Shown here piece after piece: positions 8,905 to 19,506 of a stretch of 64,000 nucleotides of DNA (position 1 is its first letter; each line of letters begins with the position of its first letter). The notes under the pieces were generated by a model, which was not told the origin of the DNA, made no database searches, and saw nothing but the letters and a program-made list of their open reading frames with translations. The stretch comes from Opitutia bacterium ISCC 52 (GTDB lineage Bacteria; Verrucomicrobiota; Verrucomicrobiia; Opitutales; UBA2995). The translations under genes were made by a program, and so were the position numbers. The DNA is taken from assembly GCA_014529675.2 (NCBI GenBank), contig CP076040.1, positions 4,429,501 to 4,493,500 of the forward strand. Direction: 5' to 3'.

Positions 8905-9729
8905 ATGTCAGAGCAACCATATCGCGGTCGGATCGCCCCCTCTCCTACAGGTTACCTGCACCTTGGACACGCGAAAACATTCTGGACGGCTTTCGAACGA
9001 TGCCAAAACGCCCATGGTTTTCTTATCTACAGAGACGAGGACATTGATTTTCATCGCTGTAAGGAAAACTTTTCACAAGCCGCGATAGAGGATCTGAAGC
9101 ACTTGGGATTAATTTGGGACGAAGGCCCAATTAAACAGTCACAAAGATCTGCTATCTATATAGAGGCTTTGGAAAAACTAGTTTCACTAGGTCTGGCTTA
9201 TCCGTGCGAGTCTTCTCGGAAGGACATCAGAGAACATCCCGAAACTATTCTATCACCAGAAAGTGAGTCCATCTTTCCAAAAGCACTTCGTCCGCAGCTC
9301 CCATCTGCTAGCTTTCCACTCAACCTGAAGACAAACTGGCGATTCAAAGTACCCGATCACCTCTGTGTTTCTTTCACAGATGGATGCCAGGGAATCAAAT
9401 CTTACAACTGCCAAGCCGATTTTGGTGATTTCCTTCTCTGGCGAAAGGAAGGCATGCCTTCTTATGAACTCGCCGTAGTGGTCGATGATATTGAAATGCG
9501 TATTACGGAGGTAGTCCGCGGTGCAGACTTACTGGCATCTACTGCCAGACAGCTTCTTATATATGAAGCTCTTGAAGCTACGCCGCCTAAATTCTACCAC
9601 GAGGACCTAGTGACCGACAAATCAGGAGAGCGACTTGCTAAGCGAAAAGACTCTTTGGCGCTCAGAACTTTATTTGCCGACGGACATTCCAGAGATTCCA
9701 TAAAAAGGATGTGGATGGCTCGTTCGTAG
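8905..9729 (+). CDS. gluQ: Glutamyl-Q tRNA(Asp) synthetase
   Basis: 274 residues. GluQ-RS activates glutamate and attaches it to queuosine at position 34 of tRNA(Asp). The class I signature is clear: RIAPSPTGYLHLGH (HIGH motif), YRDEDIDFHRCK, ELAVVVDDIEMRITEVVRG and the LAKRKDS version of KMSKS. The anticodon-binding domain of true GltX is absent, as expected. The zinc-ribbon region reads YPCESSRKDI where family members commonly show a C-x-C, so zinc binding is probably lost. Start is ATG 8905; no strong Shine-Dalgarno. The 3' end converges on the structured RNA of the opposite strand. Confidence 0.92.
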   Translation: MSEQPYRGRIAPSPTGYLHLGHAKTFWTAFERCQNAHGFLIYRDEDIDFHRCKENFSQAAIEDLKHLGLIWDEGPIKQSQRSAIYIEALEKLVSLGLAYPCESSRKDIREHPETILSPESESIFPKALRPQLPSASFPLNLKTNWRFKVPDHLCVSFTDGCQGIKSYNCQADFGDFLLWRKEGMPSYELAVVVDDIEMRITEVVRGADLLASTARQLLIYEALEATPPKFYHEDLVTDKSGERLAKRKDSLALRTLFADGHSRDSIKRMWMARS

Positions 9730-9747: not shown

Positions 9748-9769
9748 CCCTCCGGATTTCTCCGGAGGG
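9748..9769. terminator. Strong GC hairpin between gluQ and the minus-strand RNA
   Basis: A perfect 9-bp stem CCCTCCGGA / TCCGGAGGG with a four-base loop. On the minus strand the loop is GAAA (a GNRA tetraloop) and is followed by the T-rich run TCTCTTC, so it may end the large minus-strand RNA. On the plus strand no T-run follows, so it would be a weak terminator for gluQ. Confidence 0.6.
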
Positions 9770-10547
9770 CCTAAAAGATCGGGAGGAGCTCGCAACACTC
9801 TCGTCCTTCACTGACATTTTGCACTCAACTTTCGTAGGTTGTCAGTTCCCCGACGCTATTCTTCCTGGCAGGGAAGCTATCGATCTCGTAGCAGGACCGC
9901 TTAATTGATTTCTCAACTAAGTTATTGAGCAAGGCCTCTCAGCCTAAATTTTGGAATCTGCCGATTCCGCCATTCAGACACGGTTAGGAATTTATCCGCG
10001 ACGGTTTCATTCCTCTCCTTCTCCCTCAGGTCGGCCTCCACTTTTGATGGAGCGTTTGCCCTAGGGTACGGGTCTGGCCTTTTAACTCTCAGATCACTTT
10101 TTTATTCGCAGTCGTCCGCATTTTTACTGCCGACGCTTTGGATTTAGCGACTTGCCATGTCATTCAATCCCTTAGGTGATTTTCCGTTTTTCAGCCTCTA
10201 CTTTATAATCGGCTGGAGCTTCGCTCGACTTCTTTTCACATCCTGACTAATGGTAGTCATCGTGTCCTTTCTCAGGACACCACTTTCCGGATTGGGTCAA
10301 AACGCCCCTCTCCTTCTAACTCGGTCGTCTTCTGTTTCTATGCTTCAGACTCCCGCCTAACTCCGATTCGCATTTACAGTTGGGTGCGAACCCTTCTGCC
10401 GGAGCTGGTGATATATGCCTTAATTCCACTTGCGTTTCCTCAAGGGGCAAGGCCCGTCAGGTTAACCTTACCTTTTTCGAAGTAATCTTCGTTTTTTATC
10501 CCAGAGGTTTGTTTCCTCACCTCTGTTCTATCAAAGAACTGACAACC
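9748..10547 (-). ncRNA. Candidate large structured non-coding RNA (~800 nt)
   Basis: No convincing coding frame exists here. The minus strand is purine-rich with A-rich linkers and many local helices. A 16-bp long-range stem closes it: 10532-10547 (GGTTGTCAGTTCTTTG on the minus strand) with 9837-9852. Its three G.U wobbles are A.C mismatches on the plus strand. Other helices (plus coordinates): 10502-10508/10519-10525, 10478-10482/10487-10491, 10446-10452/10466-10472 (one G.U), 10359-10365/10400-10406 enclosing 10382-10393, 10262-10268/10274-10280, 10244-10249/10254-10259, 10216-10219/10223-10226, 10036-10040/10048-10052, 9986-9991/10009-10014, 9953-9958/9963-9968, 9912-9916/9925-9929 and 9861-9865/9872-9876. 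A GAAA-capped hairpin ends it. I see no RNase P, tmRNA, SRP or group II domain V signature. The 5' end is uncertain: a TTGACG/TACGAT promoter-like pair at 10548-10575 abuts the closing stem too closely. Confidence 0.7.
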
Positions 10548-10555
10548 ATCGTAGA

Positions 10556-10726
10556 GACGGAATAGCATCCGTCAACTAAAATGGTACGTAAATCGTTGAT
10601 TGGCAATACTATGTGAATATCTTGTTAATAAGTGCGTCTCAAAAATAGCAACAGCTTAGATTCATCGATTTTTCGGTCTCCATTTTACTTCTGAATGTGA
10701 ATAACCGCGGTTCGGCAATGTGAATA
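10556..10726. promoter_or_regulatory. Intergenic regulatory stretch with three ATGTGAATA direct repeats
   Basis: The nonamer ATGTGAATA occurs three times in the same orientation at 10611-10619, 10695-10703 and 10718-10726. The last two are 23 bp apart (about two helical turns) and flank an AACCGCGGTT-like palindrome. A small hairpin GACGGA/TCCGTC lies at 10556-10573. The stretch lies between the start of the minus-strand RNA and the peroxiredoxin gene, so the repeats may bind a regulator of either. The sequence up to 10903 is AT-rich, with no further gene. Confidence 0.35.
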
Positions 10727-10903: not shown

Positions 10904-11410
10904 ATGAAATTAAGACTCCTATTCCTATCAGTCAGTATTATGTTATTCAGCCAACAAGCTAATGCAGCACCTCTAGATATCGGTGATAAGGTTCCAGCGA
11001 CTCAAGCCACACTAGATTCAGGCGAAATTGTGGACCTTGCGGATTCTGCATCCACAGGCTACGCACTCATTTATTTCTACCCCAAAGCCAATACCCCAGG
11101 ATGCACTAAACAGGCCTGTAGTCTTCGGGACGCATACGAAGTTCTCCTAGAGGAAAAAGTAACGATCTTTGGAGTGAGCAAAGACAGCATCAAATCACAA
11201 CGTTCCTTCAAAGAGAAATACAACATTCCATTTTCGTTAGTGGCTGACAGAGACTCTGAAGTCATTAACGCATTTAGAGTTCCAAAGAAGGTGGGTTTTG
11301 CGAGTAGACAGGCGTTTCTTTTCAAAAATGGAGTTCTCGTTTGGAGAGACCTGGCAGCGTCCACTTCAAAACAAGCGGAAGATGTTCTGGAGTTTCTCAA
11401 AGAGTCATGA
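10904..11410 (+). CDS. Exported peroxiredoxin (Bcp/PrxQ type)
   Basis: 168 residues with a Sec signal peptide (cleavage after QQANA), then a thioredoxin-fold peroxiredoxin domain. The motif PKANTPGCTKQACSLRD carries the peroxidatic Cys and a second Cys five residues later, the PrxQ/Bcp arrangement; FGVSKDSIKSQRSFKEKYNIPFSLVAD also matches that family. It would reduce peroxides in the periplasm using an external thiol donor. Most Bcp proteins are cytoplasmic, so the signal peptide is a notable variation. A metal-dependent regulator follows 33 bp downstream, fitting a link between oxidative stress and metal control. Confidence 0.9.
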   Translation: MKLRLLFLSVSIMLFSQQANAAPLDIGDKVPATQATLDSGEIVDLADSASTGYALIYFYPKANTPGCTKQACSLRDAYEVLLEEKVTIFGVSKDSIKSQRSFKEKYNIPFSLVADRDSEVINAFRVPKKVGFASRQAFLFKNGVLVWRDLAASTSKQAEDVLEFLKES

Positions 11411-19315: not shown

Positions 19316-19506
19316 GTTTCTGAAAGCCTTCAAAGAATGCGCTATATAAGGTATTTACCCTAATTCCGCTTACACTTAGTAGAAAATCGCAATTTTTTTG
19401 GGGAAAATCCCTCTATTTCGTCGACCTGAGGTATTATCGGTTTACTTATTCACAAACTTGGTGCGTATCCTGCTTTAAAATCCTAATAGTCCTTTAACCT
19501 GCTAAG

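What the first reader, a model, noticed from the sequence alone, without database searches (positions are those of the whole stretch)
9748..10547. Large structured non-coding RNA candidate on the minus strand, closed by a 16-bp long-range helix
Seen in the sequence: the 5' segment 10532-10547 and the 3' segment 9837-9852, about 690 bases apart, pair perfectly over 12 bp and over 16 bp with three G.U wobbles. Those wobbles become A.C on the other strand, as do wobbles in helices 10446-10472 and 10359-10406, so all point to a minus-strand transcript. At least a dozen local hairpins lie in order inside it, the linkers are A- and G-rich, and a GAAA-capped 9-bp hairpin ends it. No protein-coding frame fits. 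Size and layout recall the class of ornate large bacterial RNAs (OLE, GOLLD, ROOL), but I recognise no signature of these or of RNase P, tmRNA, SRP RNA or group I/II introns. It may be an undescribed RNA.
Basis: partly seen in the sequence, partly recalled or inferred. Interest (0 to 1): 0.88.

Follow-up and report, generated by a model that had tools for sequence, protein, structure and literature searches.

The report
MISL RNA with DnaA-box promoter
The candidate is not an undescribed RNA but a clear copy of the known, function-unknown MISL RNA family; across its relatives the gene's promoter carries binding sites of the chromosome-replication initiator DnaA, and the RNA has an extra conserved 5' end that the family model leaves out, which gives the first concrete clue to what this large RNA may be tied to.

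Summary
The structured minus-strand RNA is real, but it is Rfam MISL (RF03079; 373 bits, gathering cut-off 274.6, E 2.5e-111; window 10498-9785), so "undescribed" is wrong. Its headline 16-bp long-range helix does not hold: it is not conserved, its 3' arm belongs to a covarying local helix, and about half of its 5' arm lies upstream of the predicted transcription start. The GAAA-capped hairpin sits where relatives have an intrinsic terminator.

Relatives show three things outside the Rfam model. (1) A near-invariant 5'-terminal motif, GUUC[U/C/A]UUGA, resembling rRNA boxA antitermination elements, followed by an unmodelled covarying 5' stem. (2) A promoter just upstream. (3) Above the promoter, clusters of TTATTCACA, the DnaA box that also precedes dnaA in these genomes: 111 sites within 250 nt of the 5' motif and none elsewhere in 3 kb around 80 loci. 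Tandem boxes occur 18 times in 25 genomes, 14 at MISL; in this genome only there. Neighbours are not conserved, so it is probably a trans-acting RNA whose transcription is DnaA-linked. What the RNA itself does remains inferred. GC skew argues against oriC.

The parts
9785..10498 (-). MISL RNA core, full-length match to Rfam RF03079 (model 1-751)
   Evidence: cmscan 373.3 bits, E 2.5e-111, gathering score 274.6; the only copy in the genome
10525..10539 (-). 5'-terminal motif GTTCTTTGATAGAAC, boxA-like (core TTCTTTGA), at or next to the predicted transcription start
   Evidence: boxA-type core [TA]TC[TC]TTGA within 110 nt upstream of the Rfam start in 73 of 81 relatives; 0.6% in shuffles, 11 of 801 other upstream windows. 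rRNA leaders of relatives carry GTTCTTTGAAA 126-172 nt before 16S. Exact 15-mer unique in the genome
10502..10525 (-). 5' stem (P0), CAGAGGU 10525-10519 / ACCUCUG 10508-10502, between the boxA-like motif and the Rfam start; not in the Rfam model
   Evidence: >=5 bp in 66 of 78 relatives vs 10% of shuffles, 24 distinct arm pairs, many compensatory
10548..10575 (-). predicted promoter: -35 TTGACG 10575-10570, spacer 16, -10 TACGAT 10553-10548; start predicted near 10540
   Evidence: scan (four promoter-like sites found vs 1.4 expected, so weak alone); TTGACA/TTGACG at the matching place in most non-Opitutaceae relatives
10696..10704 (-). DnaA box TTATTCACA
   Evidence: 111 TTATTCAC[AC] sites in 80 MISL loci all 50-250 nt upstream of the 5' motif, none elsewhere in about 3 kb
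10719..10726 (-). second DnaA-box-like TATTCACA, tandem with 10696-10704 (the only such tandem in the genome)
10612..10619 (-). third DnaA-box-like TATTCACA, 73 nt upstream of the 5' motif
9748..9769 (-). GAAA-capped 9-bp hairpin, probable intrinsic terminator (weak T run here)
   Evidence: sequence; hairpin plus T run at the same place in relatives of most families
   Evidence: 46 distinct arm pairs, compensatory changes; also in the Rfam consensus

Best explanation
The element is a single-copy MISL RNA gene (Rfam RF03079), transcribed on its own from about 10540 to about 9745 as a roughly 795-nt RNA. Shown: membership of MISL; an unmodelled 5' extension (boxA-like motif plus covarying stem P0); a cluster of DnaA boxes upstream of the promoter, conserved across several lineages of Verrucomicrobiota; no conserved neighbour genes. 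Inferred: DnaA binds these boxes and regulates MISL transcription (upstream placement, about 70-115 nt before the start and often 11 nt apart, suggests activation or modulation rather than steric block), so that RNA output follows replication initiation or growth; RNA polymerase is then modified at the 5' motif by NusB/S10-type antitermination so that the long, untranslated, highly structured RNA is completed; the folded RNA acts in trans, probably as a scaffold or ribonucleoprotein in growth or replication control.
For: Rfam match. 84 of 373 sampled genomes of the order carry it. DnaA boxes: 111 sites, all in -250..-50, none elsewhere; second set, drawn by a 3'-end pattern in genome contigs and partly overlapping the first, 57 of 70 loci vs 8 of 1587 control windows, including 13 of 14 of the lineage with GTTCATTGA (three of these Rfam-confirmed). 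Tandem boxes in 25 MISL genomes: 18 places, 14 at MISL; in 25 MISL-less genomes 5 places in 3 genomes. The same TTATTCACA lies about 60 nt (in some also or instead 120-375 nt) upstream of dnaA in 17 of 24 genomes; background 3 per 1.2 Mb. Readable rRNA upstream regions lack it. The 5' motif and rRNA boxA share TCTTT in seven genomes with both. P0 covariation. No neighbour shared by more than two families. DnaA is a known activator and repressor (PMC8203912); boxA sites outside rRNA are known (PMC5725501).
Against: No transcript, DnaA-binding or Nus-binding data. The boxA-like motif departs from known boxA at one core position in Opitutaceae (GTTCCTTGA) and Pedosphaera-type lineages (GTTCATTGA), and GUUC...GAAC could be a small hairpin instead. 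13 of 70 loci and some duplicate copies lack strict DnaA boxes. MISL is absent from many close relatives, so it is not essential to the clade. What the RNA does in the cell is not shown by any evidence here.
Confidence: 0.6

Rival explanations
1. The DnaA-box cluster is a DnaA titration or reactivation site (datA- or DARS-like) that happens to lie next to MISL; MISL expression is incidental or repressed by it.
For: Tandem boxes of this kind are nearly unique in these genomes, as expected of a strong DnaA-binding locus. Boxes vary in number, orientation and exact spacing.
Against: The boxes stay with MISL while the neighbourhood changes completely; MISL-less relatives mostly lack the cluster; box positions are fixed relative to the 5' end of the RNA, with preferred offsets near -80, -91, -102 and -113.
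Confidence: 0.15
2. The MISL upstream region is the replication origin oriC and MISL is an origin-linked transcript, as for CcnA in Caulobacter.
For: Strongest tandem DnaA-box cluster in the genome. In the window's genome MISL lies within about 7% of the genome length of the GC-skew origin.
Against: In the other four complete genomes sampled MISL lies 0.15, 0.25, 0.42 and 0.49 of the genome length from the fitted GC-skew origin; MISL is missing from many relatives; inside the window cumulative skew keeps falling past MISL to about 60 kb.
Confidence: 0.07
3. The TTATTCACA sites are bound by a dedicated regulator other than DnaA.
For: No binding data; readable rRNA promoters lack the sites.
Against: The same 9-mer stands at a fixed place upstream of dnaA in most of 24 genomes and fits the general DnaA box TTATNCACA (general form from memory); the published E. 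coli consensus is TTATCCACA (PMC8203912).
Confidence: 0.15
4. The 5' motif is not a boxA but a conserved 5' hairpin or initially transcribed element of MISL.
For: GUUC...GAAC can pair in Opitutaceae, Pedosphaera-type and window-family members; core position 5 varies U/C/A between lineages.
Against: The pairing is broken in several families (GATCTTTGACAGAA, GTTCTTTGACAGTAC) while the letters stay boxA-like; rRNA leaders of the same genomes carry the same core.
Confidence: 0.4
5. An undescribed RNA class closed by a long-range helix.
For: The complementarity exists in this one sequence and, shorter, in G410.
Against: Rfam RF03079 match; helix not conserved; 3' arm used by a covarying local helix.
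Confidence: 0.01

Closest known systems
MISL RNA (Rfam RF03079)
   Same: Full-length match, the same helices, mostly single-copy chromosomal gene in Verrucomicrobiota.
   Different: The Rfam model starts at GGAUAAU; the conserved 5' motif and stem P0 and the DnaA-box promoter are not part of it. The window copy is shorter (714 nt matched against 751 model positions).
OLE, ROOL and GOLLD ornate RNAs
   Same: Similar size and dense local structure, unknown or partly known function (PMC12286853).
   Different: No Rfam match to them; ROOL and GOLLD are prophage/phage RNAs often near tRNA islands, whereas MISL here is chromosomal with no tRNA in the window. No oligomer data for MISL.
rRNA operon leaders with boxA
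   Same: TTCTTTGA-type element at the start of a long structured untranslated transcript.
   Different: MISL's motif is at the predicted 5' end, not 126-172 nt upstream of the mature RNA, and has one variable core position; no leader-trailer helix was found.
CcnA, origin-linked cell-cycle ncRNA of Caulobacter
   Same: Bacterial ncRNA associated with DnaA boxes (PMC8959179).
   Different: CcnA is 182 nt, lies in the origin and is presumed CtrA-activated; MISL is about 800 nt and not at the GC-skew origin in most genomes tested.

Membership tests
MISL RNA (RF03079) | Covariance-model score above the curated gathering score | tested here: met
   373.3 vs 274.6 bits, model 1-751 without truncation
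MISL RNA (RF03079) | Conserved helices with compensatory changes in homologues | tested here: met
   Local 3' helix: 46 distinct arm pairs in 82 sequences, all 7 paired in 49 vs 1.7% shuffled
MISL RNA (RF03079) | Expressed as an RNA | not testable with these tools
   No transcriptome; promoter and terminator-type signals only
DnaA-regulated promoter | DnaA boxes (TTATNCACA) near the promoter, conserved in relatives | tested here: met
DnaA-regulated promoter | DnaA binds and changes transcription | not testable with these tools
   Needs gel shift/ChIP and reporter assays
boxA antitermination element | Match to the boxA of the same organism's rRNA leader | tested here: inconclusive
   Core TCTTT shared in seven genomes with both; Opitutaceae and Pedosphaera-type copies differ at one core position and their rRNA leaders could not be read
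boxA antitermination element | NusB/S10 binding | not testable with these tools
   Needs a binding assay
Replication origin oriC | Position at the GC-skew origin in relatives | tested here: not met
   Distances 0.07, 0.15, 0.25, 0.42, 0.49 of genome length in five genomes, coarse samples
OLE/ROOL/GOLLD | Match to their Rfam models | tested here: not met
   Only MISL reported in the 64-kb window at gathering thresholds

The most novel reading that the evidence does not exclude
MISL is the RNA output of a DnaA-controlled circuit in Verrucomicrobiota: a large structured RNA made in step with replication initiation, with an rRNA-type boxA at its 5' end, acting in trans on replication, cell-cycle or ribosome control. 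I know of no large ornate bacterial RNA that has been placed under DnaA.
Probability: 0.4. Interest if true: 0.85.

Novelty: new member of a known kind. Interest (0 to 1): 0.55.

Why it matters
MISL is an orphan: only its structure is described, and the searches of the held papers found no statement of function. The conserved DnaA boxes and 5' extension give it a first testable biological link, to replication initiation, and show that the Rfam model is cut short at the 5' end. If DnaA really controls MISL, it would connect a large structured RNA with the bacterial cell cycle in a phylum where both are poorly known.

Tried and rejected
MISL as oriC: GC skew does not agree across genomes. MISL as a leader of a neighbouring gene: no neighbour family recurs in more than two of 12 taxon families. 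Viral MISL: one pattern match in viral contigs (L374) is not MISL by Rfam; likewise the three out-of-phylum matches tested, L268 (Caulobacterales), L271 (Anaerolineae) and L292 (Solirubrobacterales). 16S genes could not be found in the window's genome or in most complete relatives, so the boxA comparison rests on nine leaders from eight genomes, one of them too short to read.

Full report
What was claimed.

What it is. Infernal against all 4227 Rfam families gives one hit in the whole window: MISL RNA, RF03079, at 10498-9785 on the minus strand, 373.3 bits against a gathering score of 274.6, E 2.5e-111, model positions 1-751 without truncation. It is the only copy in the 4.8-Mb genome. MISL is found in 84 of 373 sampled genomes of the same order, 31 of 388 of the phylum sample and 6 of 8 of the family. 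It is really absent from many relatives: 25 MISL-negative genomes searched again with laxer settings stay negative. That Rfam's MISL comes from the comparative-genomics work of the Weinberg and Breaker groups is from memory; the searches of the held papers returned only the Ribonanza chemical-mapping paper as mentioning it (PMC10925082), and no paper on its function.

The local hairpins listed (10446-10472, 10359-10406) are the Rfam helices. The long-range helix is not. In 80 relatives the two regions pair no better than shuffled sequence (13.8 vs 13.2). Its 3' arm ACUGACA pairs with UGUCAGU about 30-50 nt downstream in a helix that is kept through compensatory changes (GCUGGCA, GCCGGCA, GACGACA, GCACAC and others; 46 distinct arm pairs, all seven pairs formed in 49 of 82 sequences, shuffled arms 1.7%). 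The best promoter match, TTGACG-16-TACGAT at 10575-10548 (weak on its own, four promoter-like sites against 1.4 expected), would place transcription start near 10540, so nearly half of the 5' arm would not be in the RNA. The GAAA-capped hairpin at 9769-9748 stands where relatives have a hairpin followed by a T run.

What Rfam's model leaves out. All but a few relatives carry GTTC[T/C/A]TTGA-type sequence 40-160 nt before the Rfam start. With the stricter core [TA]TC[TC]TTGA it is present in 73 of 81 within 110 nt, against 0.6% of shuffles and 11 of 801 control windows. Between this motif and the Rfam start lies a stem (P0; CAGAGGU/ACCUCUG here, CAGUCGC/GCGACUG in Opitutaceae, GGAAAC/GUUUCC, UGAAGUG/CACUUCA and others): at least 5 bp in 66 of 78 sequences, 10% of shuffles, 24 distinct arm pairs. 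The functional RNA therefore probably begins about 40 nt upstream of the Rfam model in this genome.

The 5' motif looks like boxA. rRNA leaders that could be read in relatives have GTTCTTTGAAA 126-172 nt before 16S (G410 of the window's genus, G444, G211, G551); G320 has GATCTTTCACAG and G059 GATCTTTGATAA; G023 has GTTCTTTTAAA. MISL in the same genomes has GTTCTTTGATAG (G410), GTTCTTTGAAAG (G444), GATCTTTGACAG (G211), GTTCTTTGATAG (G551), GATCTTTGACAG (G320), GTTCTTTGAAAG (G059) and GTTCTTTGAGAT (G023). The TCTTT core is shared in all seven. The gammaproteobacterial boxA consensus is GYTCTTTAANA (PMC5725501), and that study states that its own search did not consider non-coding RNAs. Against the reading, Opitutaceae have GTTCCTTGA and Pedosphaera-type lineages GTTCATTGA, and GUUC...GAAC could be a small hairpin. 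I put boxA at about 0.55-0.6.

DnaA boxes. Upstream of the promoter the relatives carry TTATTCACA/TTATTCACC, often two to four, in either orientation, with preferred offsets near -80, -91, -102 and -113 from the 5' motif. In 80 loci, TTATTCAC[AC] occurs 111 times between -250 and -50 and not once in the rest of about 3 kb per locus. In a second set taken from genome contigs by a 3'-end pattern (it includes some of the same organisms as the first set, and also Pedosphaera and subdivision 3), 57 of 70 loci have at least one box of the form TTATNCAC[AC] against 8 of 1587 control windows, and 13 of 14 in the GTTCATTGA group (L258, L302 and L341 confirmed as MISL). Over 25 whole MISL-bearing genomes the tandem TATTCACA-N1-16-TATTCACA occurs at 18 places, 14 of them directly upstream of MISL, and in the window's genome only there (10696-10726); 25 MISL-less genomes have five places in three genomes. 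The identity of the box is supported by dnaA itself: TTATTCACA stands upstream of dnaA in 17 of 24 genomes, mostly about 60 nt before it, and three of the seven negatives had almost no upstream sequence. The 9-mer is rare elsewhere (3 in 1.2 Mb sampled), and readable rRNA upstream regions have none.

Is it an origin? In five complete genomes MISL lies 0.07 (window), 0.15, 0.25, 0.42 and 0.49 of the genome length from the GC-skew origin fitted to samples, so it is not the origin in general. The samples are coarse.

Autonomy. Neighbouring genes are conserved only within families (peroxiredoxin, DtxR-type regulator and glutamyl-Q tRNA synthetase-like gene in the window's family); no neighbour cluster spans more than two of the 12 taxon families. 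Together with its own promoter and terminator-type hairpin this points to a trans-acting RNA.

Mechanism proposed. DnaA occupies the upstream boxes and sets MISL transcription (inferred; DnaA is known to activate or repress promoters, PMC8203912). The nascent 5' end recruits Nus factors (inferred). The finished, densely folded RNA works in trans (inferred), and nothing here shows on what. I give 0.6 to the combined statement, most of the doubt being about the boxA step and the RNA's target.

Verdict. The finding as written is an already described RNA family; the long-range helix is a coincidence. The promoter architecture and 5' extension, found by following the relatives, appear to be new and make a long-standing orphan testable.

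Noticed in passing
G155 (C5 and C33) and G331 (C44 and C5): Two MISL copies in each of two genomes of one family; in each genome one copy has DnaA boxes upstream and the other has none.
   Followed up: partly
G420 C96:737 (L168) and G431 C2:19368 (L169): In two relatives from the window's genus a second tandem TATTCACA pair lies about 8.7 kb from MISL on the same contig; the window has a single TTATTCACA at 19446.
   Followed up: partly
L170 (G320) and L171 (G278): Tandem DnaA-like boxes away from MISL in two genomes of another family, L171 with at least four boxes; possibly a further DnaA-bound locus.
   Followed up: no
upstream of dnaA, L130-L153: A TTATTCACA box on the strand opposite dnaA, at about -60 and in several also about -350, is conserved across these genomes; probably dnaA autoregulation.
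   Followed up: partly
G048 C35:14795-14824: Three near-tandem DnaA boxes in a genome without MISL; the locus was not read.
   Followed up: no
window 8905-9729 and 10904-11410: Glutamyl-Q tRNA(Asp) synthetase-like gene converging on MISL, and a peroxiredoxin-like gene divergent from it, so the DnaA boxes lie between two divergent genes; names from the translations, not tested by family search.
   Followed up: no
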